NCBI GenBank assembly: GCA_029259915.1
Contig: JAJDED010000025.1
Location: forward strand, 1-64,000
DNA: 64,000 nt
Direction: 5' to 3'
Source: Planctomycetota bacterium
GTDB lineage: Bacteria; Planctomycetota; Planctomycetia; Pirellulales; Lacipirellulaceae
Within the stretch, counting starts at the first letter, position 1. The number at the start of each line of letters is the position of its first letter. This document shows, piece by piece, positions 32,577 through 43,958 of this stretch. The position numbers and the translations under genes are program-made. The notes below the pieces were generated by a model, which made no database searches, was not told where the DNA came from, and was given only the letters and a program-made list of their open reading frames with translations.

Positions 32577-33287
32577 CTACTCATCCGCAAGGCTTGCGGC
32601 AGACTTTTTCTGACAGAGCGGAACTCGATAGGCGGATGGTGTGCTGGTCGGTTGGCTTTCGGTTGCAGAGACTTGGCGGATCAGGTTTGTCTCTATTGGA
32701 CTGGTACGTGGAAAGTCGTTGGTTGCCGGCACCTCTGCCGAGCAGCCACATCCGGGGCAGCATCCGTCGCCCTCGCAAGAACACCGATTGCCGCTACGAA
32801 CACACTGTACCTTCCACTCGGTGCCACATTTTTTGCACTTGTACTTGTGCTGTTCAAGGACGTTCACGCAACGAACTTTTCCGCATTTCGGCGGACAATT
32901 GCAGCAACCGCTCGTGCAACCACCCTCGCCACAGCAGCTACCCGCCGCGCAATCGCGCTTCGAACCGCCAGCGCATTCCCACGGCCAACGAAAACTGGGA
33001 ATGCAAACGTATTTGCTTTTCACTTTCCAACATTTCTTCTCGACTTCCTCAACCACGCGCTGGGGACAGCAAGTCGGCTTGCAACAACAATTGCCAGCGC
33101 AATTGCAGCAGCCAGCTGCGCCGTCGCAACATCCTGCGGGTCTGACTTCAGAAGCACTCGCTTTGAGTACATGATCGGCAGTTGTGGCCAACGCACCAGG
33201 CTGTTGAAGACTTTGCGCTTGCACACTAGTCGTGAAAACAATAACCATGCTCAAACCGAAGGTTGTCGTTTGCAAGATAGAATTCAT
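32577..33287 (-). CDS. Cys-rich secreted protein
   Basis: A 236-residue exported protein with signal peptide (LSMVIVFTTSVQAQ). The central part (residues 48-195) contains some 37 cysteines in CC and CxxC clusters: CCDGAAGCCNCAGNCCCK, GSCCGEGGCTSGCCNCPPKC, and a zinc-ribbon-like CKKCGTEW. It also carries VVEEVEKKCWKVKSKYVCIP, a block shared by many planctomycete Cys-rich proteins as far as recalled. It is probably periplasmic or at the surface, binding metal or crosslinked by disulfides. Adjacent to a porin gene on the same strand, 123 bp away. Confidence 0.8.
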   Translation of the reverse strand: MNSILQTTTFGLSMVIVFTTSVQAQSLQQPGALATTADHVLKASASEVRPAGCCDGAAGCCNCAGNCCCKPTCCPQRVVEEVEKKCWKVKSKYVCIPSFRWPWECAGGSKRDCAAGSCCGEGGCTSGCCNCPPKCGKVRCVNVLEQHKYKCKKCGTEWKVQCVRSGNRCSCEGDGCCPGCGCSAEVPATNDFPRTSPIETNLIRQVSATESQPTSTPSAYRVPLCQKKSAASLADE

Positions 33288-33409: not shown

Positions 33410-34909
33410 TTAGAAGTCGACCATAAAACGCGTTCCAAGAACCGTGTAATGGCCAGAAACTGCCCCGAGCGAATTTTGCGGGTCGGCGTCGTCGAACCCT
33501 TCGCGGTCGTCGATCTCGCCATAGATCGCGTTGAATTGCATCCGTGCGTAGGGATTCCAATGCCAGTTTAAGCCGAGAGTGTGGCTCTGACCGCGACCCC
33601 CGAGAACATCGGCATCGGAAAAATTGGCGTACGACCAACGATAGGCAACTTGCCAGGCTCCCCACCCGCCGCGAACCCCTTCGCAACAGGTATTGACCAG
33701 AAAGAAGTTCTCGAAAGGTTCCACGCGGCCAAGAATTCCATCTTCTCGGTCCCAAGGAATATGCTCGCCTGTGAGGAAGTAAGAAGCGTAGAAATAACCG
33801 CCGTCGAAATGCAGATCGCTGCCGCCGTTGCGGTCGAGCCACAAGTTTTGGTACTCGCCCACAAGCTGTAAGGGGCCGGAGTTCCAAACATTCTCCAGCC
33901 CAAGCACCTGGTAGTTATCGGCACCGTCAATCGTGCCAGTATCGATCCAACGGTTGACCGTACGTGCCTCGGGGCGATGCCGAAAGCGAGCTTCGTTGGT
34001 TGCCCGACCAGGCAGATTGCTGCCGTCGGGGTTGGCGGCCGTCCCAGAAACGGCCCAATGTCCGTAGCCGCGACCACCCGAAGTTTCGTCGTACCAGAAT
34101 GTATTAGCCAGCCGCCCGGCAACTTCCATCTGGTAGTGGTCGCTGATGTAGTTTCCTTCGTCCTGAATCAAGCGCTGGTTGAAAACGCCGTAGCGCCAGT
34201 TCCATACTTCATCTTCCGAGACGCCATACGATTGGATACCAAATCGCCGGGCGTCTTGATTGATCGACTCGATGACAAACGGCCTCTCGATAAACACGTT
34301 GTAACGGCTACTGTTTAAGTGATCCAAGCCGTAAGGTCTTTTTTGATTACCAACCAGCAACTTCTGCAAAATTGGGAGGTCTTTCCAACCGAGATACGCA
34401 TCGCGGAATTCGGTCTTGTTGCCGCCCGCGAATTCTATTTCGATTTTGTAAAGCATCGTTTTCCAAAGGTCGCCCTTCACACCAAAGCGAAGGCGACGAA
34501 AACCAATGCGATCCTGCGGAGAAATTGCAGGATCGTTGTTTTCAAAGATGTTCACCCCGGGCGAATCCCCAGGAAAGGCCCAGTGATCGGCGTGCACGCG
34601 GCCGTTGACTTTCATCGTGGCCCAGCCATGGCCCGAGTAGGAAGCATTCTTCAGCTTCTTCTTCAGCTCGTTGTAATCATTCTCAAGATTCTGGTTCTTC
34701 GTTTCTAGCGAAGCAAGTCGATCTTCAACCGTCAGAGAAGACGCTTCGCCATCGAAAAGCGTATCGTAGTAGGCGACCGGTTGAGTGGGGCAAAGTTCGA
34801 CCGGCGGCAGTGGACGAATTACGTCGTCTTGCTCAGCTGCGGAAACACCCGCAATAAAAGCCACAACAGCAAACGTAAAACTCCACAGGGCTTTGACGTA
34901 AAGCCTCAT
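33410..34909 (-). CDS. OprO/OprP-type phosphate-selective porin
   Basis: Outer-membrane beta-barrel of about 499 residues, starting MRLYVKALWSFTFAV at 34909. After the signal peptide comes a short coiled coil (DRLASLETKNQNLENDYNEL), then the barrel with alternating aromatic strands: RIGFRRLRFGVKGDLWKTML, EFRDAYLGWKDLP and, at the end, GHYTVLGTRFMVDF with a terminal Phe typical of outer-membrane insertion. This layout fits the OprO/OprP porin family. Selectivity for phosphate or another anion is not provable from sequence by eye. Confidence 0.88.
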   Translation of the reverse strand: MRLYVKALWSFTFAVVAFIAGVSAAEQDDVIRPLPPVELCPTQPVAYYDTLFDGEASSLTVEDRLASLETKNQNLENDYNELKKKLKNASYSGHGWATMKVNGRVHADHWAFPGDSPGVNIFENNDPAISPQDRIGFRRLRFGVKGDLWKTMLYKIEIEFAGGNKTEFRDAYLGWKDLPILQKLLVGNQKRPYGLDHLNSSRYNVFIERPFVIESINQDARRFGIQSYGVSEDEVWNWRYGVFNQRLIQDEGNYISDHYQMEVAGRLANTFWYDETSGGRGYGHWAVSGTAANPDGSNLPGRATNEARFRHRPEARTVNRWIDTGTIDGADNYQVLGLENVWNSGPLQLVGEYQNLWLDRNGGSDLHFDGGYFYASYFLTGEHIPWDREDGILGRVEPFENFFLVNTCCEGVRGGWGAWQVAYRWSYANFSDADVLGGRGQSHTLGLNWHWNPYARMQFNAIYGEIDDREGFDDADPQNSLGAVSGHYTVLGTRFMVDF

Positions 34910-35101
34910 ACTAATCCCCCCATGCACGAGAACGGCGATCCTATGCCGTTAGCAAGAAAGATCGGCAGTTGGGAGAAACGGGTTTATTAAGATTCGAGGT
35001 TAAACTGGTAATGGTGCTAATCAAGCTAGTAGCACTGATAGCAGTCTGCACTCTGAGAGTGAAGGAGACGCAGGAAGCAATCGCCTGCGGGATGGCCAGA
35101 A

Positions 35102-35606: not shown

Positions 35607-36398
35607 TTAGCTGATCAACTCGCATCCTTCGCAGGCTTCTGGACGCTCTAACGGGCTCGGCTCGGTATGCTGCGCTGTGGACTCGACGCCGAGCAATGCT
35701 CGTTCGGCAGGGATGAGCGCTGCGAGGAATACGCCGGCTTGGTCATAGAAGCCGCCTGGGTCTTCGTGGGAAAGCAGCCTAGCGAAGGCGGGTGCCCACC
35801 ACGAGAGATGCTCGCGCAGGAATCTCGCTTGCGCTTCGCGGCAGACTTCCAATCGCTGTTGGCGAATGGCCGCGTCACAGGAGTAGGCCTGTCGTTCCAA
35901 GCCGAGGAGAAATGCCATAAACTCCAGCTCCTGCACGATGTGGTCCGGACGTTCTGGGTGTGTTGTGGACGTAGTCAGGCCAAATGCACGATAAAAACCG
36001 CTAACGTCGGCTAACGTGTTGCTACGCTGAAACGCGTACTTGCTGTTGATGTACTCCGTTTCATACGGTGGGCATGCATTCGAGACCAGCAGCCCGAAAG
36101 TGTTCTCGAACTCTTCATTCAACTTGTCACGAGTATGGGGAAGACGATTTAGCACCGGATCTGGATCGAGTTTGGAAAGCGGGTGTTCGCCAGGCCCCAG
36201 CTTTCTCAGTGTGGCCTCGGGTAAGTCGCGAATAAGGTTCGCTGCTTCGGATAAGAGCGCATCTTCACGCAGTGCGTCGAGTTGTTCCCAACCACCGGCC
36301 TTGGGATCAAGCAGCGTCAAGGCCGCGAAGCGATAGAGCGTCTGACGAGCCATAAGAACGGCTGGATCACAACCAATCTCATCCGTAGTTTCAGTCAT
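35607..36398 (-). CDS. TorD-family molybdoenzyme maturation chaperone
   Basis: A cytosolic chaperone of about 263 residues for a type II DMSO-reductase-family alpha subunit. It should bind the Tat signal and apo-enzyme until cofactor insertion. Visible family features are FENTFGLLVSNACPPYETEY in the middle and the helical ERPDHIVQELEFMAFLL. The C-terminus CEGCELIS contains a CxxC. The start MTETTDEIGCDPA at 36398 was chosen; in-frame upstream starts would overlap the beta-subunit stop. It is the last gene of the molybdoenzyme operon, directly after the beta subunit. Confidence 0.9.
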   Translation of the reverse strand: MTETTDEIGCDPAVLMARQTLYRFAALTLLDPKAGGWEQLDALREDALLSEAANLIRDLPEATLRKLGPGEHPLSKLDPDPVLNRLPHTRDKLNEEFENTFGLLVSNACPPYETEYINSKYAFQRSNTLADVSGFYRAFGLTTSTTHPERPDHIVQELEFMAFLLGLERQAYSCDAAIRQQRLEVCREAQARFLREHLSWWAPAFARLLSHEDPGGFYDQAGVFLAALIPAERALLGVESTAQHTEPSPLERPEACEGCELIS

Positions 36399-36466
36399 AG
36401 TGAATCTCTTTGCTAAAAAGCGATCTGACAGTTTACTCATTCCGAAGGTGGCGGCCTTCGATTTGA

Positions 36467-37771
36467 TCAAATCGAGTTTACGTGCATGTCTGCTGGCCGC
36501 TCAAAAGTCGGTTCTTCGACGGTAACGCGGACAACCTCTTCGCCAAGTTTGTTGAAGCCAAGGACTGTGTCGTTGAACAATTCCTGCGTCTTACTGGAAC
36601 CATCGGGCATGGTCACTTCGATTTCGCCGACCTTAGGGCCTTCTTCTATTTCGAAGCGAAAGACGATTTGTTGATTCGCGCGAAATAGCTGCAAAACTGC
36701 CAGCAGTTCCCGGTCGGGACAACTGTATTGTTCGATGGCATGGTCGACGCCTGGTCCAAACATTTGCACCAAATAACTGCGTGGCACCCAACGCGGTGGA
36801 ATGTAGAACCCATTGGGCTCGGTACCGAACTGTGGGTAGAGTGGCAAAGCGATCTGCCGCTGGCGGATTAAATAGTAAAGTGGATTCTGCGGGTCTTCGG
36901 TCCAAGTTCCGTCTTCTTCAATGCTCAATAAACCTTGCAGGCGAATCTTGCCAACGCAGGCGGCCATGCATCGTGTTTCCGCTGGAGCACCCGTCGGGCT
37001 GACAGTCTTGTCCTTGCCTTCCAATCGTGGGAAACAACCGATGCACTTTTCGGTCGTCCTCGTTGTGGGCCGATACATCGCCTTCTTGTAGGGGCAGCCT
37101 TCGACGCACTTGCGGTAACCGCGACAACGGCCCTGATCGACTAACACGACGCCGTCTTCCGGCCGCTTGTAGATCGCGTTACGCGGGCACGAGGCGAGAC
37201 AACCTGGGTAAGTGCAGTGATTGCAGATGCGTGCCAGATGGAAGAACCAAACCTTGTGTTCCGGCAATTGAGCTTCACCGCCGTAGTCGTCTTTTCCTTT
37301 TGTCTTGAATTGGTCACCGGTTGCCGTATCCTCGTGGATGTTGGGCGCGCGCCACTGATCGTCGGTGGGAAGATAGCCTAGCGCCTGCTGGGCGCCAAAG
37401 TCAGGGCGCGGCTTCTGGTTGGCGGCGTCAAAAATCGTGAGGCCGTCGAAGACGCCATAGGGTTTCTTTTCTGTTTCTTTGTTGCGTGCGTCCCAGACCT
37501 GTCCGCTGGGATTGGCCTCCTCCAACATCGCGAGCAGCTTCGCGTCCCAGTGCTGCGGATAGCCGCCGTAGGGCTTCGTCTCTACATTGTTCCACCACAT
37601 CAATTCCTGGCCTTTGGAAAAAGTCCAGGTGCTTTTGCAGGCCATCGTGCAGGTTTGGCAGCCGATGCAGCGGTTGGGATTGAAGACGAACGCAAACTGC
37701 GTCTGCGGATGGCGCTCCTCGTGGGGGTAGCTCATCTCGCGACCGATTTGCCAGTTGTAAACGGTAGGCAT
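36467..37771 (-). CDS. nxrB: Iron-sulfur beta subunit, nitrite oxidoreductase/nitrate reductase-like (NxrB/NarH type)
   Basis: A 434-residue electron-transfer subunit with four Fe-S cluster motifs. They are CIGCQTCTMAC (Cys35-45), CNHCTYPGCLASCP, CRGYRKCVEGCP (Tyr replaces one Cys, the position that is Trp in NarH and binds a [3Fe-4S] cluster) and CIGC with later RCMAAC. Long stretches (STWTFSKGQELMWWNNVETK, KRPEDGVVLVDQGRCRG, FGTEPNGFYIPPRWVPR) agree, as recalled, with NxrB of Nitrospira and anammox bacteria. It lacks its own signal, so it is presumably exported with the Tat alpha subunit. GGAGG lies 8 bases before the start. Confidence 0.88.
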   Translation of the reverse strand: MPTVYNWQIGREMSYPHEERHPQTQFAFVFNPNRCIGCQTCTMACKSTWTFSKGQELMWWNNVETKPYGGYPQHWDAKLLAMLEEANPSGQVWDARNKETEKKPYGVFDGLTIFDAANQKPRPDFGAQQALGYLPTDDQWRAPNIHEDTATGDQFKTKGKDDYGGEAQLPEHKVWFFHLARICNHCTYPGCLASCPRNAIYKRPEDGVVLVDQGRCRGYRKCVEGCPYKKAMYRPTTRTTEKCIGCFPRLEGKDKTVSPTGAPAETRCMAACVGKIRLQGLLSIEEDGTWTEDPQNPLYYLIRQRQIALPLYPQFGTEPNGFYIPPRWVPRSYLVQMFGPGVDHAIEQYSCPDRELLAVLQLFRANQQIVFRFEIEEGPKVGEIEVTMPDGSSKTQELFNDTVLGFNKLGEEVVRVTVEEPTFERPADMHVNSI

Positions 37772-37814
37772 TGCGAAGCCCTCCTTCGTGGGCCAAGTTT
37801 TATCTCACCAGGTG

Positions 37815-38165
37815 TTATTCCAGCATTTCGATTTGCACTAAACGCTCCGAAGTCGGTACTGTTTCCTTCGTTGTCACACGGATGACTCCACACCGGGCCA
37901 AAATTTGCCCGATTTGTGACGTCAACTTTTCCTCACCAAAGAACTGCAACAGACCGTGAAATGCCTGATAATTGGGATCACGGGCTAACTGCAAGATTTC
38001 TTCGGCTCCCCATCCAATACGAGCGTACTCTTCGACCAACAGCCGTAGCATCAGGTTGGGATCGCCTGGCACTTCAAAGCCATGCATTTGCATAGGGTCG
38101 TCGGGCAAAATCTCCCGTGTCGCCGGATGCACCTTGGCAGTCGCGTGAGAGTTCTCATCGGACAT
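37815..38165 (-). CDS. Conserved-looking 116-residue protein of the molybdoenzyme operon
   Basis: A small soluble protein, not recognised. It starts MSDENSHATAKVHPATREIL behind AAGGGA and has two helical blocks: PNLMLRLLVEEYARIGWGAEEI and FGEEKLTSQIGQILARCGVI. No signal peptide, cofactor motif or membrane span is seen. It lies between the alpha and beta subunit genes, 50 bp from alpha and 43 bp from beta, where an assembly factor, small structural subunit or regulator could be encoded. The codon usage matches its neighbours. Confidence 0.8.
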   Translation of the reverse strand: MSDENSHATAKVHPATREILPDDPMQMHGFEVPGDPNLMLRLLVEEYARIGWGAEEILQLARDPNYQAFHGLLQFFGEEKLTSQIGQILARCGVIRVTTKETVPTSERLVQIEMLE

Positions 38166-38215
38166 GTCTGTTTCCCTTCAATTTTGGTTGTTATCAAGGG
38201 CCAGCAGTCGAGCGA

Positions 38216-41200
38216 TTATGATTTCACCGTCACGTATCCGCCGACCAGATACTGATCGTTCTGGGGCGAGTCCGAACCTGGGCTGTAGCCGGATTCGGCC
38301 GGCTTCCACAAACCGACCCCGCCAATGCCGCCATCTTCCGCTTTCGTGATGCGGATCAACGTTTCCTTCGGTACCGTGTTGATTGCATGGTTGTCGACGT
38401 CGAAACCAAAAGTGAAACCCATTGCGCCCGTTTTTTTGTGGAACAGCGTATCGGTCTGGTGCATCGGCATCATCCAGTTTCGCGTGATGCTTTGGTGCGA
38501 GCCATAGCGGTAGCTGGCCTGGTAGCCGGTCTCAGCGACCAACGCCCGGCCATCCGGACGTGTTTCGTGTGCTTTGACCGACCGCTCGCTGGCAATCCAA
38601 CCGGTGTGTTTCATAATTGTGAAGTTGTACGGCAAGCCCGGATTAAACTTCACGCGGACCATGCAACGAAATGCCTTATGCCGCGGACCATCGTCATCCT
38701 TCCACCCAATATAAGGACGATCGAGTTCATTGGCATCAACCCACACATAGTCGCCTTCATTCAATCCCTGATCGCGAGCGGCTTGCGGGTTGATTTGAAT
38801 CTGGCGATCAGCCACGCCTGGCGCCCGCTTGTCGGTGCGGTGTGGATCGCCAAAGTTATCGCTCCAGATCCAATGCCAATCGACGGTCGACCACGAAGAG
38901 TGGGTCGTATGGCGGCTCTTGGGTGTGCAACAAAAAAACGAGTAACCTTGCGACCACAACGGGTTTACCGTCTTCTGCACTTCGTCCCATGGCATCTTTA
39001 CGTTGCGAACTTGTCGTAAGTCGGCGTCGAGCGTGTCGTGTGCAATGCCATAATCCACCGGACGTATGAACGGGCTCGTCGAGACGATCACGTTCGGCAA
39101 ATAGGGCGTGGCCTCGACACCTTCGCGATGCACACAAAGATTTTCGCCATACTCGATAGCTTCGGGGATGTCGCAGTAGCTGTGCAGTCTACCGCTATCC
39201 GTATAAAACGGAATCGAATCGTGAATCTGCTCCCAAAACGGAACTCGGGGATACGTGCGGAACAACATCAGCCCCGCACCCGGCTCGCCGCCGTACTCGC
39301 CCGCGATAAATTTGTCGACGTCGTAAGGCCCGTCCTTGCCACGCGTGGTAGTGCTGTTGTCGAAGACGCGTTGAAGATAAATCTTGGCTTTGCCTTCGGT
39401 GACAAATTTGAAGTAGTCGGAAAATCGTTTGTCGCCAGTCTTGGCTGCCAGCGCGTCGGCAACTTTGGCGAAGACCATGCCGTCGTCCACGGTGTCGTGA
39501 ACCGGCCTGATTCCCCCTTTCCAGATCTGAAGAAATGGATTCGAGCAAGAACCGCCGCATTCGTAGTCCTCGATTTCGACCCACGAATTGACCGGCAGCA
39601 CAACGTCGGAATACTCCGCGCTGCCAGTCCATTCGATCTGCTGATCGACGATCATGTCCACCTTAGGCAGCACATTGGCGATAATGTTGTAGACCCATTT
39701 CGCCTGGTTCAAGAAATTCGCGTTGTTGTACCACACGACCTTCGTCGGCGTAGGCATGTGAGATTCGCCGGTAAAGCATCGCTTGTCGCCGTTGGGAAGG
39801 TCCACGGTGAGCGTCTTTTCCCCACTCGCCCAATACGAGGGGTCTTCGACGTCGGTCGTGTGCCGAAGGTCGGCACGGGTAATGCGCGCATTTTCGTCGA
39901 GTACGGGAGCGAATGGGTCTTCATGCGTGTAGCTGCCGACGCCGGGACCACTCCACGACGATGCCTGGAGCAGCGCACCCTTATAGTTGCCTGCCCACGT
40001 GAACGAGCCCGCTCCGTGTTTGCCGATATTGCCTGTAAGCAGCAACGGAAGATACGTCGCACGATTGTGCAGCGTCGCGTGGAAATAGTGATTCACGCCC
40101 TCGCCAATGTGAATTGCTACGGGGTGCCCCGCCTCGGTCGTCTGCCAAATATCTTCAGCCAAACGTCGAACCAAGTGGGCTGGTGCGCCCGAGATCTCTT
40201 CCACTGTTTTCTCATCGTAATCCGCCAGATGCCGCTTGTACATTTCCATGACCGGCATCACTTCGGCTTCGCTGCCATCGGCAAGCTTGACTCGAAACGT
40301 GCCTTCGAGCGCCGCATTGATATTTGCATGGTTGCCCACATCGTCGCGGCTGATAAAGGCAACTCGGTTCGTATCGTTGTCCCAAACGCAGAAGTCGCCG
40401 ATCTTCGCCCGCTGTGCATCGGTCAAACCTTGTATTTTATAAGACGGTCCGCCGCTAATGTCTTGAGGTTGATAGTCCGCCTGAATATCCTCCGGTCGCA
40501 AACGCCGCAGGTTGTCGGTTCGTACCAGCAGGGGGAAATCGGTGAAACGTCGGCAAAAGTCTGGCTTGTACCAGTCGTTGTCGAGCATGATTTTCGTCAC
40601 GCCCAACAGCACGGACAGATCCGACAGCCCCGGTCGTACGCTGATCCAGTAATCTGATTTCGTAGCCGGGCAATTGTATTCGGGCGCGATGTCGACTAGT
40701 TTCGCACCGCGCTCCATGCACTCGTTCAGCCAGTGCGATTCGGGCATCTTATTTTCAATGAGATTCTTGCCGATCTGGATGACCAGCTTGCAGAACCGCA
40801 TGTCGTTGAAGTCCATATCAGCCGTTTGCAAACCGTGAACGAACGGGTGGCCCGGGGCTTGATCGCCGCGCCAAGTGTACTCGTTCCAGTCGCGTGCCCC
40901 GCGTGCTTCTTCCGGCGGTACATTGCGAATGTGGTGGTCCAACAAACCGAGCACATTGGCAAAGCGGTAGATGCCAAACTTGCCTACTACGCCGTGAATG
41001 GGGAGATTGGAGCCGATCTTGACGACGCGCGTGCCAGCCCCTTCCACCTTGTCGATCATCCGCTGTTCGTAGCCATCCTTCTTCAGACGCGCTGCGCCTT
41101 CGTCGCCGCTATACGTCCCAGAGATAGCGTGCAATGCTTCGGCAACGTATTTCGACGCTTCGTCCCACGACATTCGCACATAGCTGTCGTTGCCTCGGTC

Positions 41201-41683
41201 GTCGAACTTGTATTTCGTACGCAGTGCCGGATTGTCCGATAGCGACGGGCAACCGTCGTCGACCCATTGTTTCCACCCCCGACGAAGCACGGGCCCCTTG
41301 AGTCGATAGGGTCCGTAAACCCGCCGCTGCATCGTGAATCCTTTCGGACAGCCGCGTGGGTTCCAGGCTTTGGTGGCCCGGTTGCCATACAAGTCGCCGC
41401 AGCGGTCGTGGTCGTAATTCTGCTCGCTACGGATCATGACGCCATTACGCACAAATGCGCGAAGCCGGCACATATGCGTGTCATTCGGGGCACAAACCCA
41501 GGTAAACGTGTCGTCGTAGCGATATTGGTCGAGGCAAACCTTTTCCCAACCGCGATTCGGGTAGGCTCCCAGGGGATTGTCGATGCTCACCGGTGCAAAA
41601 GCCCAGGCTTGCGCTCCTGCGGCCAACAGCGATCCACCGCTAGCGGCGCACGTTTCTAGGAAATGTCGGCGTGAAACATTCAT
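38216..41683 (-). CDS. nxrA: Molybdopterin alpha subunit, nitrite oxidoreductase/nitrate reductase-like (type II DMSO reductase family)
   Basis: Catalytic subunit of 1155 residues, close in length to anammox and Nitrospira NxrA as recalled. A Tat signal (MNVSRRHFLETCAASGGSLL) shows export to the periplasm. An N-terminal Fe-S-binding region follows (CAPNDTHMC, then RCGDLYGNRATKAWNPRGCP). Mo-bis-MGD family segments include VIQIGKNLIENKMPESHWLN and GEGVNHYFHATLHNRATYLP. AAAGGAG lies 7 bases before ATG 41683; an upstream frame extension is not signal-like. Likely reaction: nitrite oxidation or nitrate reduction; chlorate or selenate cannot be excluded. Expected to pair with the beta and cytochrome-gamma subunits. 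Confidence 0.88.
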   Translation of the reverse strand: MNVSRRHFLETCAASGGSLLAAGAQAWAFAPVSIDNPLGAYPNRGWEKVCLDQYRYDDTFTWVCAPNDTHMCRLRAFVRNGVMIRSEQNYDHDRCGDLYGNRATKAWNPRGCPKGFTMQRRVYGPYRLKGPVLRRGWKQWVDDGCPSLSDNPALRTKYKFDDRGNDSYVRMSWDEASKYVAEALHAISGTYSGDEGAARLKKDGYEQRMIDKVEGAGTRVVKIGSNLPIHGVVGKFGIYRFANVLGLLDHHIRNVPPEEARGARDWNEYTWRGDQAPGHPFVHGLQTADMDFNDMRFCKLVIQIGKNLIENKMPESHWLNECMERGAKLVDIAPEYNCPATKSDYWISVRPGLSDLSVLLGVTKIMLDNDWYKPDFCRRFTDFPLLVRTDNLRRLRPEDIQADYQPQDISGGPSYKIQGLTDAQRAKIGDFCVWDNDTNRVAFISRDDVGNHANINAALEGTFRVKLADGSEAEVMPVMEMYKRHLADYDEKTVEEISGAPAHLVRRLAEDIWQTTEAGHPVAIHIGEGVNHYFHATLHNRATYLPLLLTGNIGKHGAGSFTWAGNYKGALLQASSWSGPGVGSYTHEDPFAPVLDENARITRADLRHTTDVEDPSYWASGEKTLTVDLPNGDKRCFTGESHMPTPTKVVWYNNANFLNQAKWVYNIIANVLPKVDMIVDQQIEWTGSAEYSDVVLPVNSWVEIEDYECGGSCSNPFLQIWKGGIRPVHDTVDDGMVFAKVADALAAKTGDKRFSDYFKFVTEGKAKIYLQRVFDNSTTTRGKDGPYDVDKFIAGEYGGEPGAGLMLFRTYPRVPFWEQIHDSIPFYTDSGRLHSYCDIPEAIEYGENLCVHREGVEATPYLPNVIVSTSPFIRPVDYGIAHDTLDADLRQVRNVKMPWDEVQKTVNPLWSQGYSFFCCTPKSRHTTHSSWSTVDWHWIWSDNFGDPHRTDKRAPGVADRQIQINPQAARDQGLNEGDYVWVDANELDRPYIGWKDDDGPRHKAFRCMVRVKFNPGLPYNFTIMKHTGWIASERSVKAHETRPDGRALVAETGYQASYRYGSHQSITRNWMMPMHQTDTLFHKKTGAMGFTFGFDVDNHAINTVPKETLIRITKAEDGGIGGVGLWKPAESGYSPGSDSPQNDQYLVGGYVTVKS

Positions 41684-41753
41684 TAATTCGCTCCTTTGGT
41701 AGCCATCGTATCCAGCGCGGTGAAGCAAAAAAACTGACGCGTTTCTCCTGCGG

Positions 41754-43415
41754 TTACTTCTCCAACTCAAGATCCTGCCATATCGTGATTAACTTCTGGC
41801 CATCGCGGTCCTGGTGCGAACCGTTCCAGATCGCGAATGCGACCGACGCTTTCTCACCCGGCCCCAACGAGACGCCTTCATCGGGCGTATCGACTGACAG
41901 CGCCCGCTGCATCACGACCGTCCAACGCCCCTCTTTCCATTGCCCCATGGCCGTGACAAGTTGGCTTTTGGGAATGCGGAAGGTGACGCTACCGGGTCCA
42001 CCGACACCCAAGTCGGAACCACCAGAGATCGATCGACCCGGGACGATCTGATTCTTTGCAGCTAAGGCGGGTAAGCTGATGCTGGGCTGCTCATCCCGTA
42101 AGGTTCCTTTGCGGTGATATTCTGCCGTTGCAACAAGGTTCTCGCTGAATGGATAGATGTCAGCCACGATATTAGGGTATTGATCTTCGACATCGATTGA
42201 TGTCTGCCGATCCGCATCCCAGAACCAGACGTCCACCGACTGGTCCACACTCCCCATGCCAAGGAACGGTTCCGCGTTGCCGCGAACCAATTCCATCGCC
42301 ACGGCGTCCTCGAACGACTCGCTTCGGGTCGCATGCTTGTCTTCAGACCCATCTTTCCAAGTTATTCGTATAGCGATCGATTTGCCGTCATGGATGGCCT
42401 GTATTTGGAGGTTGGGATCCGCGTCATTGCGCCACCAAAGCGGCATGATCTTCAGGTTGACCTGCGCAATTTCCGACCAGGCATTCGAATCGAAGGGCTC
42501 AGGGATCGCGTTGACGGCTCTTACGAAGATTTTTGCGCGCTTCATGATTGCAGCCAATCGCATGTCTTCGCTGGAGAGTGAACGAATAAAATGCACTAGG
42601 TCGACAACTTCTTCCGGCTTCAACGCGCTCGAACCAGGCATCGGCGTGCCGGGCATCCCATAAGCAACTCGGCGAAACAGAGACGCTCCGTCGTGACCAC
42701 CCTTAAAGATGCCTAGCGTGAAGTCGCGCGGACTTGTAGGAAATCCCTCACCGTCCACCATCTTCTCCACGCCATCGCCCCGTCCTTCTTTTCCGTGACA
42801 AGAGTGACAACTCTGTTTGAAATAGACATCGCGACCACGAGCAATGGACTCCGTATCGGGCGACTCGATCACGGGCACACTGCGGCTCTCGCCAGGAGTC
42901 GTGAATCGCTGTACGTAGTCGTCGATATCTGCCTGAACCTCTTCTTCAGCGATTTCCTCTTCCGTCAGTTCTTCCTCTTCCCGGAGATAAGCCACAAAGG
43001 ATTCACGAGCGCCTTCTTTTCTCATCAGAAGTACCTCGTCGACAAGCGCATCGCGCTCCGCTTGCCCGAGGTGCTCCCAAGGTGGCATCGAGGAACCGGG
43101 CATGCCGCGAAGCAGCACGGCGTGCAAGTCCTCGCGAGTCGGGACATTGTTTGAAGTGCTCACCAGCCGAAACCGTCCGGCACGGAAATCCCGAGGCTTG
43201 GGAAACAAGAATGCCGCCGCAATTCCTTTGCTGTCGCCATTCTGGCCATGACAAGCGGCACAATGGAGGGCATAGAGCTCTTTCCCCGAGGGCGGAGATG
43301 CCGCAGAAGCACGCTGACAGCCCATCAAGCTAAGGGAGATAATCATACTGACAACTGTCAGAGAAGCCGTCGCTCTTACAGGCACATTGATCTGATGTTT
43401 CTCTCCGCGTCTCAT
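41754..43415 (-). CDS. Di-haem cytochrome c fused to haem-b gamma-type domain
   Basis: A periplasmic electron-transfer subunit of 553 residues starting MRRGEKHQ at 43415 behind AAAGGGAG. A lipobox-like LSLMGC (Cys33) is followed by cytochrome c domain 1 (CAACH at 52-56) and domain 2 (SCHSCHGKEG near 203). A strongly acidic linker (EEEELTEEEIAEEEVQA) separates them. Residues about 290-553 form an ethylbenzene-dehydrogenase-type (DMSO reductase gamma) haem-b domain (IQAIHDGKSIAIRITWKDGS). It probably accepts electrons from the beta subunit and passes them to soluble cytochrome or a terminal oxidase, since no quinone-reactive membrane subunit is present. Confidence 0.88.
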   Translation of the reverse strand: MRRGEKHQINVPVRATASLTVVSMIISLSLMGCQRASAASPPSGKELYALHCAACHGQNGDSKGIAAAFLFPKPRDFRAGRFRLVSTSNNVPTREDLHAVLLRGMPGSSMPPWEHLGQAERDALVDEVLLMRKEGARESFVAYLREEEELTEEEIAEEEVQADIDDYVQRFTTPGESRSVPVIESPDTESIARGRDVYFKQSCHSCHGKEGRGDGVEKMVDGEGFPTSPRDFTLGIFKGGHDGASLFRRVAYGMPGTPMPGSSALKPEEVVDLVHFIRSLSSEDMRLAAIMKRAKIFVRAVNAIPEPFDSNAWSEIAQVNLKIMPLWWRNDADPNLQIQAIHDGKSIAIRITWKDGSEDKHATRSESFEDAVAMELVRGNAEPFLGMGSVDQSVDVWFWDADRQTSIDVEDQYPNIVADIYPFSENLVATAEYHRKGTLRDEQPSISLPALAAKNQIVPGRSISGGSDLGVGGPGSVTFRIPKSQLVTAMGQWKEGRWTVVMQRALSVDTPDEGVSLGPGEKASVAFAIWNGSHQDRDGQKLITIWQDLELEK

Positions 43416-43493
43416 GGCTCGCGCTCCCTTTCTCACGCCGTTAGGCGCTGCGAACGATCCTCACTGCACATGTTTCATGAAGTGACGAAGCAA

Positions 43494-43958
43494 CTATCTT
43501 GCCAGTTGCTTCGTCTTTCGCTTCCTTTTCTTCTTTGTCCCAGCCGGACATTCCTTGGATGAAAATACGTTCAGCTTCGTCTGTTTGAGGAACGAGTCGA
43601 ATTGCTCATCAAACTGTACATAAGTATCATGGAGCGGGCAGGGATCTTTGTTGCCGCACCACTCTGGTCCGAAAGGACAAACGATTCGGTTTTCCATTCG
43701 CTCAAAAACCGACACGATATCGAACAGCGATATCTTTCCTGGCGCGAGGGCAAGACGATAGCCGCCTCCAGGACCTCGCTCACCCACAACCAACCCCGCC
43801 TGCGAGAGCATGGTCAATAGCTTGGCGACGAGTGTCTGTGCCAGATGTCGATCGCGGGCGATGTCGATCGAAGAAAGCAGGTGTTTTTCTGCGTAGGCCT
43901 CTGCCAGTCGGCTCATGGCCGCGATCGCATTCTGTGCAGTTTTGCCGTAAGGGGTCAT
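43494..43958 (-). CDS. Rrf2-family transcriptional regulator with Cys triad
   Basis: A 154-residue regulator. An N-terminal winged helix (KHLLSSIDIARDRHLAQTLV, LSQAGLVVGERGPGGGYRLA) matches Rrf2 proteins such as IscR and NsrR. The Cys triad CPFGPEWCGNKDPC (C-x6-C-x5-C) is where these proteins bind an Fe-S cluster that senses NO, redox or iron. The C-terminus is a basic tail (KKKRKRKTKQ). GGAAG precedes the start. It is the first gene on the minus strand before the cytochrome/alpha/beta genes, 78 bp upstream, so it is probably their redox- or NO-responsive regulator. Confidence 0.9.
   Translation of the reverse strand: MTPYGKTAQNAIAAMSRLAEAYAEKHLLSSIDIARDRHLAQTLVAKLLTMLSQAGLVVGERGPGGGYRLALAPGKISLFDIVSVFERMENRIVCPFGPEWCGNKDPCPLHDTYVQFDEQFDSFLKQTKLNVFSSKECPAGTKKKRKRKTKQLAR

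What the first reader, a model, noticed from the sequence alone, without database searches (positions are those of the whole stretch)
35607..43958. Complete NXR/Nar-like periplasmic molybdoenzyme operon in a Pirellulales-type genome
Alpha (Tat signal, 1155 aa), beta (four Fe-S motifs, strongly reminiscent of NxrB), cytochrome-gamma fusion, TorD chaperone, a 116-aa protein and an Rrf2 regulator lie on one strand. Nitrite oxidoreductase of this periplasmic clade is known from Nitrospira, anammox planctomycetes and a few others. Finding it here raises the possibility of nitrite oxidation or periplasmic nitrate/chlorate reduction in a heterotrophic planctomycete.
Basis: partly seen in the sequence, partly recalled or inferred. 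Interest (0 to 1): 0.85.

Follow-up and report, generated by a model that had tools for sequence, protein, structure and literature searches.

The report
Nitrite oxidoreductase-type operon in a planctomycete
This stretch holds a complete set of genes for a nitrite/nitrate-converting enzyme of the nitrite oxidoreductase family in a planctomycete that is not an anammox bacterium; such genes were already reported from related bacteria, but the set includes a small gene, apparently undescribed, that goes with this enzyme in many phyla.

Summary
Confirmed: six genes on the minus strand (Rrf2, gamma, alpha, a 116-aa protein, beta, TorD). Alpha and beta match Kuenenia NxrA/NxrB over their full length (1488 and 565 bits; perchlorate reductase 165 and 207; NarG/NarH 92 and 169) and keep the Mo, substrate and Fe-S ligands. 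Both lie in the periplasmic NXR superclade, in a branch of Planctomycetota and neighbouring phyla, outside the anammox and Nitrospinota branches. Gamma fuses a di-haem cytochrome c with the NxrC haem b domain, like the alt_NxrC of Nitrospina. The genome codes for aa3 and cbb3 oxidases; NirK, NirS, a full-length NrfA and RuBisCO were not found. NXR in Planctomycetota other than anammox, Pirellulaceae included, was published in 2023: a new member of a known kind. Less expected is the 116-aa protein: a family without Pfam or NCBIfam name, 3' of nxrA in 65 of 80 sampled NXR loci of many phyla, in 0 of 7 anammox genomes searched, and fused to a PpiC-type isomerase in 6 of 6 Nitrospinota genomes searched. 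It is probably an NXR assembly factor. The direction (nitrite oxidation favoured) is inferred, not shown.

The parts
43494..43958 (-). Rrf2-family regulator (154 aa) with three clustered cysteines (C94, C101, C107), possibly an Fe-S, NO or redox sensor
   Evidence: Pfam Rrf2 82 bits, NCBIfam rrf2_super; cysteines; an Rrf2 gene lies near gamma in some relatives
41754..43436 (-). gamma subunit, 560 aa: lipoprotein-like signal (SLSLMGC), two CxxCH haem c sites, C-terminal EB_dh/NxrC haem b domain
   Evidence: Pfam cytochrome c x2 and EB_dh; PDB 6h5l_B and 7b04_C; Met155/Lys305 haem ligands kept; CxxCH motifs
38216..41683 (-). alpha subunit (NxrA), 1155 aa, Tat-like signal; FS0 ligands C64, D68, C72, C112; substrate Asn N67; Mo ligand D274
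   Evidence: 7b04_B 1487.9 bits; alignments; trees
37815..38165 (-). 116-aa protein of an unnamed family found next to nxrA; proposed NXR assembly factor
   Evidence: HMM and genome searches; no Pfam or NCBIfam match for the window copy and none convincing for the family
36467..37771 (-). beta subunit (NxrB), 434 aa, no signal peptide seen, 15 presumed cluster cysteines
   Evidence: 7b04_A 564.8 bits; cysteines; tree
35607..36470 (-). TorD-family chaperone
   Evidence: Pfam PF02613 75.7 bits; NCBIfam DMSO_red_II_cha 67 bits, below its cut-off

Best explanation
This is a periplasmic enzyme complex of the NXR family that interconverts nitrite and nitrate. Inferred assembly: alpha and beta fold in the cytoplasm, TorD helps to insert the Mo cofactor, the 116-aa protein helps to fold or join alpha and beta, and both leave together by the Tat route. 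Inferred electron path: Mo site - FS0 - four clusters of beta - haem b of gamma - two haems c of gamma, which sits at the membrane as a lipoprotein - soluble cytochrome c or the haem-c-bearing oxidases. The favoured direction is nitrite oxidation as an extra energy source in an otherwise organotrophic, oxygen-respiring planctomycete; the enzyme could run backwards as a nitrate reductase when oxygen is short. Shown here: family, ligands, operon, oxidases in the genome. Not shown: activity, direction, location, lifestyle and the role of the 116-aa protein. The confidence given is for 'NXR-family nitrite/nitrate enzyme'; for nitrite oxidation as the main direction I give about 0.55.
For: Full-length match to the solved Kuenenia NXR, shown to be bidirectional. 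Mo Asp, substrate Asn and the 3Cys/1Asp FS0 residues identical in 14 of 14 comparison alphas, 14 of 15 presumed cluster cysteines identical in 14 of 14 betas. Haem b Met/Lys ligands kept in gamma. Alpha and beta group in the NXR superclade apart from the Thermogutta-type rows. Own genome has aa3-type and cbb3-type oxidase genes, a cytochrome c protein two ORFs from CoxA, no NirK, no NirS, no full-length NrfA. Gamma carries haems c and no quinol-oxidising membrane domain was matched.
Against: No enzyme or growth data. The Kuenenia enzyme reduces nitrate faster in vitro than it oxidises nitrite, with artificial partners, and related clades hold nitrate reducers. The authors of PMC10732223 could not assign a direction from sequence either. 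The 3Cys/1Asp site is not diagnostic: it occurs in NXRs and NARs, by lineage, and in the Thermogutta-type rows. No RuBisCO in 15 of 15 genomes tested; other carbon fixation routes were not tested. NXR is patchy: 3 of 14 same-genus genomes, own included, carry it. NO-handling genes (ScdA, qNOR) near the operon in some relatives fit either direction.
Confidence: 0.88

Rival explanations
1. The complex is a dissimilatory periplasmic nitrate reductase: electrons flow from the bc complex through cytochromes c and gamma to nitrate, and nitrite is excreted.
For: Kuenenia NXR reduces nitrate well with viologen. A cultured nitrate-respiring planctomycete, Thermogutta, has a distant relative beside bc-complex genes. 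The window's genome has a cytochrome b and a Rieske protein in the NapA-like cluster. Rieske and cytochrome b genes lie near the NXR operon in L051 and L053, a cytochrome b gene in L038.
Against: The presumed Thermogutta alpha is only 41% identical and falls in another clade, that genome lacks the 116-aa family and has NrfA (547 bits), while this genome has only a 25-bit fragment. The window's genome has a separate NapA-like protein, itself far below the NapA cut-off. No bc genes beside this operon in the window.
Confidence: 0.35
2. [quoted passage not shown]
For: Same fold family; matches to DMSO_red_II and ethylbenzene dehydrogenase models, all far below their cut-offs; one Cld-family gene in the genome.
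Against: 165 bits to the perchlorate reductase structure and 120 to ethylbenzene dehydrogenase against 1488 to NxrA.
Confidence: 0.04
3. The operon does not belong to this genome (binning error) or is no longer functional.
For: The assembly has 64 contigs, is 93.2% complete and 3.49% contaminated; 11 of 14 same-genus genomes lack the operon.
Against: Contig of 99,811 bases with even base composition across the operon; two other same-genus genomes carry 96% and 93% identical alphas; all frames open.
Confidence: 0.03

Closest known systems
Kuenenia stuttgartiensis NXR-ABC (PDB 7b04 by recall; PMC8387239)
   Same: Full-length alpha and beta homology; Mo Asp, substrate Asn, 3Cys/1Asp FS0, beta cysteines, haem b Met/Lys
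   Different: About 56% (alpha) and 59-61% (beta) identity to anammox sequences; gene order; gamma carries two extra haems c; has the 116-aa gene, not found in 7 of 7 anammox genomes
Planctomycetota NXR of the Oslofjord tunnel MAGs (PMC10732223)
   Same: Planctomycetota outside the anammox group with NXR-clade alpha; L044 is isolate OFTM341, named in that paper, 76% identical in alpha
   Different: A different organism; the passages I saw do not mention the 116-aa gene
alt_NxrC of Nitrospina gracilis (PMC3578206)
   Same: Haem b domain together with haem c sites (passages)
   Different: Here it is the gamma gene inside the operon, in place of a short NxrC
NxrX of Nitrobacter (PMC4786786)
   Same: Gene between nxrA and nxrB, thought to help NXR fold (passages)
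   Different: NxrX is a peptidyl-prolyl isomerase; the 116-aa protein has no isomerase domain but matches the C-terminal part of a Nitrospinota PpiC-type isomerase. No NxrX sequence was compared
Thermogutta terrifontis NarGHI (PMC5673643; probably G017)
   Same: Same order by the tool's grouping, distant homologue, TorD neighbour
   Different: 41% identity, separate clade, next to bc-complex genes, no 116-aa family, genome has NrfA

Membership tests
Periplasmic nitrite oxidoreductase (NXR) | Alpha and beta placed in the NXR/pNar superclade | tested here: met
   54 of 59 alphas, SH-aLRT 100; 50 of 54 betas, 98, against Thermogutta-type rows. No Nitrospira or Nitrotoga sequence was at hand
Periplasmic nitrite oxidoreductase (NXR) | Mo Asp, substrate Asn and 3Cys/1Asp FS0 in alpha | tested here: met
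   residues named; also kept in the 41% Thermogutta-type rows, so not diagnostic
Periplasmic nitrite oxidoreductase (NXR) | Four Fe-S clusters in beta | tested here: met
   15 conserved cysteines; C45 is His in 5 of 14 rows
Periplasmic nitrite oxidoreductase (NXR) | Gamma with b haem held by Met and Lys | tested here: met
Periplasmic nitrite oxidoreductase (NXR) | Export: Tat signal on alpha, none on beta | tested here: inconclusive
   Tat-like SRRHFLE read by eye; no signal predictor was run
Periplasmic nitrite oxidoreductase (NXR) | Nitrite oxidation by the enzyme or the organism | not testable with these tools
   Needs assay
Respiratory Nar of the Thermogutta type | Alpha and beta in the Thermogutta-type clade | tested here: not met
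Perchlorate/chlorate reductase | Closest to PcrA/ClrA | tested here: not met
   165 against 1488 bits; that 4ydd is perchlorate reductase is recalled
Perchlorate/chlorate reductase | A true chlorite dismutase | tested here: inconclusive
   One Cld-family gene, not typed further; no non-carrier control in the order
alt_NxrC gamma | EB_dh haem b domain plus haem c sites in one protein | tested here: met
NxrX (Nitrobacter) | PpiC-type isomerase domain in the gene between nxrA and nxrB | tested here: not met
   No Rotamase match for the window copy; none among the families listed for 66 members

The most novel reading that the evidence does not exclude
The 116-aa protein founds an undescribed family of dedicated NXR assembly factors (or small subunits): near-obligatory in the sampled part of the NXR superclade, replaced by a PpiC-isomerase fusion in Nitrospinota and absent from anammox bacteria. 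It would mark NXR-type operons apart from Thermogutta-type nitrate reductases and point to an unknown maturation step of the enzyme family that makes nearly all natural nitrate.
Probability: 0.5. Interest if true: 0.6.

Novelty: new member of a known kind. Interest (0 to 1): 0.45.

Why it matters
If it oxidises nitrite, planctomycetes that are neither anammox bacteria nor classical nitrite oxidisers add to nitrate production, and marker-gene surveys that count every nxrA as one or the other misread the nitrogen budget. The 116-aa gene gives a simple co-marker and a testable maturation factor for an enzyme family whose anammox members cannot be made in a foreign host (PMC8387239).

Tried and rejected
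Perchlorate/chlorate reductase and the 41% Thermogutta-type Nar were considered and rejected as the family. The porin gene 33410-34927 lies 679 nt from TorD; a search of the related loci with it printed no match above 40 bits (the loci from the genome search hold only about 1.5 kb of flank), so I do not count it as part of the operon. Repeat and promoter/terminator scans gave nothing useful: scattered imperfect repeats, 5 promoter-like sites against 5.0 expected, 15 terminator-like sites against 10.8. Cld as evidence: inconclusive. RuBisCO: absent in 15 of 15, but G446 of the Nitrospinota phylum lacks it too, so this does not exclude autotrophy. Solved structures for the 116-aa family: two designed toroids at E 6e-11 and 1e-8 over 21 positions of a repetitive helix, otherwise E above 0.05; not taken as kin. 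Nitrospira and Nitrotoga sequences could not be obtained: the single genome-contig scan kept its best 80 loci, none titled as either. A third AU test did not finish. In the two large searches with the 116-aa profile at most 12 first-look candidates per genome were scored, so an absence there is not absolute.
Full report
OBSERVATION. The operon is real and intact. On the minus strand lie Rrf2 (43494-43958), gamma (41754-43436), alpha (38216-41683), a 116-aa protein (37815-38165), beta (36467-37771) and TorD (35607-36470), with gaps of 43 to about 70 nt and a 4-nt overlap of beta and TorD. The window is bases 1-64000 of a 99,811-base contig in an assembly of 4,208,455 bases, 64 contigs, 93.2% complete, 3.49% contaminated. 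That the order is Pirellulales is inferred: alphas of same-order genomes are identical to those of records titled Pirellulales or Pirellulaceae (G010/L045, G129/L037, G144/L041).

WHAT THE SUBUNITS ARE. Among solved structures alpha matches NxrA (7b04_B) over nearly its full length with 1487.9 bits; 4ydd_A follows at 164.6, ethylbenzene dehydrogenase at 120.4, NarG at 91.7 or less. Beta gives 564.8, 207.2, 188.9 and 169.2 bits for the same order of enzymes. Gamma's first half matches 6h5l_B, a cytochrome with two haem domains, its second half NxrC. That 7b04 and 6h5l come from Kuenenia and that 4ydd is perchlorate reductase is recalled. NCBIfam's type II DMSO reductase models match alpha, beta, gamma and TorD, all below their cut-offs.

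LIGANDS. The Kuenenia paper (main section read) names Asp275 as Mo ligand, Asn70 at the substrate, a 3Cys/1Asp FS0 cluster with Asp71, and Met155/Lys305 for the b haem of NxrC, and shows that the enzyme works both ways. The window has D274, N67, D68 and C64, C72, C112 in alpha, identical in 14 of 14 comparison alphas. These residues are also kept in the 41% Thermogutta-type rows, and the paper says that Asp or His at FS0 varies by lineage in NXRs and NARs alike, so they show a complete site, not the direction. Of 15 conserved cysteines of beta, 14 are identical in 14 of 14 rows; at C45 five rows (two of the Scalindua type, three of the Nitrospinota phylum) have His. Gamma keeps Met and Lys and has two CxxCH sites. 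The motif after the Mo ligand is Y-4x-D-11x-QT, as in the two Kuenenia rows; L091 and L111 differ at the last residue. PMC6050957 gives QN for Nitrospira and QM for Nitrotoga (passages).

PLACE IN THE TREE. A FastTree of 110 alphas and an IQ-TREE of 59 alphas put the window in the NXR superclade (54 of 59 rows, SH-aLRT 100), apart from five outgroup rows of about 40% identity. In one search the window sits in a 51-row branch of Planctomycetota with single or few rows of Kiritimatiellota, Lentisphaerota, Sumerlaeota, Omnitrophota, Acidobacteriota and one titled Nitrospina; Pseudomonadota, Actinomycetota, Chloroflexota and Methylomirabilota stand next to it. The forks that join this branch with anammox and Nitrospinota-phylum alphas are not starred (83 and 94). 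Beta (54 rows) gives the same home for the window (22-row clade, 98). 'Nitrospinota' here means the phylum of G396, the genome of L049, titled 'uncultured Nitrospina sp.'; its members are unnamed. No Nitrospira or Nitrotoga sequence was available, a real gap.

SPREAD. In 396 genomes of the order, own included, 41 carry a homologue: 29 an NXR-type alpha (56% identity or more) and 13 the 39-42% type, one genome having both (counted). One of the 13, G017, has narG-narH-gamma-TorD beside bc-complex genes and a strong NrfA, which fits the description of Thermogutta terrifontis, a planctomycete that grows with nitrate (passage of PMC5673643); the identification is inferred. In genome contigs 503 of 589 matched stretches encode some relative at E up to 1e-3 (list cut off; not all need be NXR); the best 80 loci were kept.

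THE 116-AA PROTEIN. A profile started from the window copy found relatives in 65 of the 80 named loci, 3' of nxrA. The 15 without: nine anammox loci (by title or by place in the tree), five loci with under 900 bases left after alpha (L035, L047, L068, L075, L077), and L072, which has room and lacks it. In L035 an ScdA gene follows alpha, as in L036, where the 116-aa gene comes after it. In the 396 genomes of the order, 25 have it; all 25 are NXR-type carriers and all have it beside alpha. The one extra partial hit (G190) lies at a contig end with beta and TorD. Of the four NXR-type carriers without it, three have alpha cut by the contig end (G031, G065, G073) and one (G060) has TorD straight after alpha and no beta match on that contig. 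Of 398 genomes of the phylum of G397 one has it, G397 itself, an NXR carrier. In whole-genome searches in which all candidates were scored, 0 of 7 anammox genomes and not G017 have it, while 6 of 6 Nitrospinota-phylum genomes have one weaker match each (E 6e-10 to 2e-8), not in the nxrA-nxrB gap, which is too short. In all six it is the C-terminal part of a protein of 183-214 aa whose first part is a PpiC-type isomerase. Profile comparison with one of them gives 54 columns, 13% identity, E 3.5e-9. Members have no convincing Pfam or NCBIfam match; the best, Recombinase in 5 of 66 at E 0.004, is weak. Nitrobacter has an isomerase gene, nxrX, between nxrA and nxrB (passages of PMC4786786). Hence the inference: a factor for folding or joining alpha and beta. 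The phrase 'between nxrA and nxrB' occurs in no paper of the library, and no paper holds Nitrospina, nxrA and peptidyl-prolyl together; a gene described in other words, in figures or outside the library would be missed.

THE REST OF THE GENOME. PF00115 finds three genes: an aa3-type CoxA (610 bits, cut-off 671), a cbb3-type CcoN (176, cut-off 583) and a qNOR-like protein with the NorB cytochrome c-like domain. A NapA-like protein (297 bits, cut-off 904) lies with NapH-like proteins, a long cytochrome c, a cytochrome b and a Rieske protein. No NirK, no NirS, only a 25-bit fragment for NrfA, no RuBisCO. So oxygen respiration is coded for and no classical nitrite reductase was found; this favours nitrite oxidation or one-step nitrate reduction over denitrification or ammonification. 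The genome is 93% complete, so each absence is provisional. The weak PF00384 hit on C11 was not examined; the one on C57 is an FdhF/YdeP-type oxidoreductase.

HOW IT PROBABLY WORKS. Nitrite is oxidised at the periplasmic Mo site; electrons run through FS0 and beta to the b haem and on to the two c haems of gamma, then to cytochrome c and the oxidases. PMC3578206 proposed that haem c-bearing alt_NxrC proteins hand electrons on in Nitrospina (passages); here that kind of protein is the operon's gamma. The lipoprotein-like signal is seen in the window and in some relatives only. The Rrf2 regulator with three clustered cysteines suggests control by NO or redox state. ScdA (Fe-S repair after NO stress, recalled) lies within the fetched flanks in 6 of 80 loci, and qNOR in one.

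NOVELTY. PMC10732223 (passages) reports 19 NXR-clade alphas in Planctomycetota MAGs, Pirellulaceae and Bythopirellula among them; its authors could not assign the direction from sequence and hypothesise nitrite oxidation. L044 is one of its MAGs (OFTM341). PMC10359470 (passages) finds Planctomycetota, Scalindua included, as the main nxrA carriers in two oxygen-deficient zones. The operon is therefore a new member of a known kind. What I did not find described in the passages I read is the 116-aa family and the alpha exchange noted below.

Noticed in passing
L081, L082, L087; also L026-L030 for alpha: These planctomycete operons have gamma, 116-aa gene, beta and TorD in the usual planctomycete order, but an alpha that groups with Chloroflexota and others. 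Holding L081, L082, L087 with the planctomycete alphas costs 337.6 log units (p-AU 4e-25); keeping their betas out of the planctomycete betas costs 89.2 (p-AU 0.002). The catalytic subunit seems to have been exchanged alone. Groups were named after seeing the trees, and a third test did not finish.
   Followed up: partly
L049, L145 (G396): A genome titled Nitrospina, whose phylum group holds Nitrospina-like NXR carriers, has a planctomycete-type NXR operon (69% alpha) on a 10.8-kb contig with gamma moved behind TorD: horizontal transfer or a binning error.
   Followed up: no
L095 488-2122, L106 222-1847: Two anammox nxr clusters hold, besides the short NxrC, a second gamma-like protein of about 545 aa with two CxxCH and the Met/Lys haem b positions, like the window's gamma.
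   Followed up: no
L176 (G000 C64:60001-80000): Cluster with a divergent NapA-like protein, NapH-like proteins, a 967-aa cytochrome c with at least six cytochrome c stretches, cytochrome b, Rieske protein and an Rrf2-like ORF (the last judged by eye): perhaps an unusual respiratory complex.
   Followed up: partly
L037 4101-7535: A qNOR gene (1429 bits to the window genome's copy) and an ScdA/hemerythrin gene on the opposite strand beside the NXR operon of a Pirellulaceae MAG.
   Followed up: no
window 32577-33287: A 236-aa ORF very rich in cysteine (repeated CC and CxxC) near the porin gene; not analysed.
   Followed up: no
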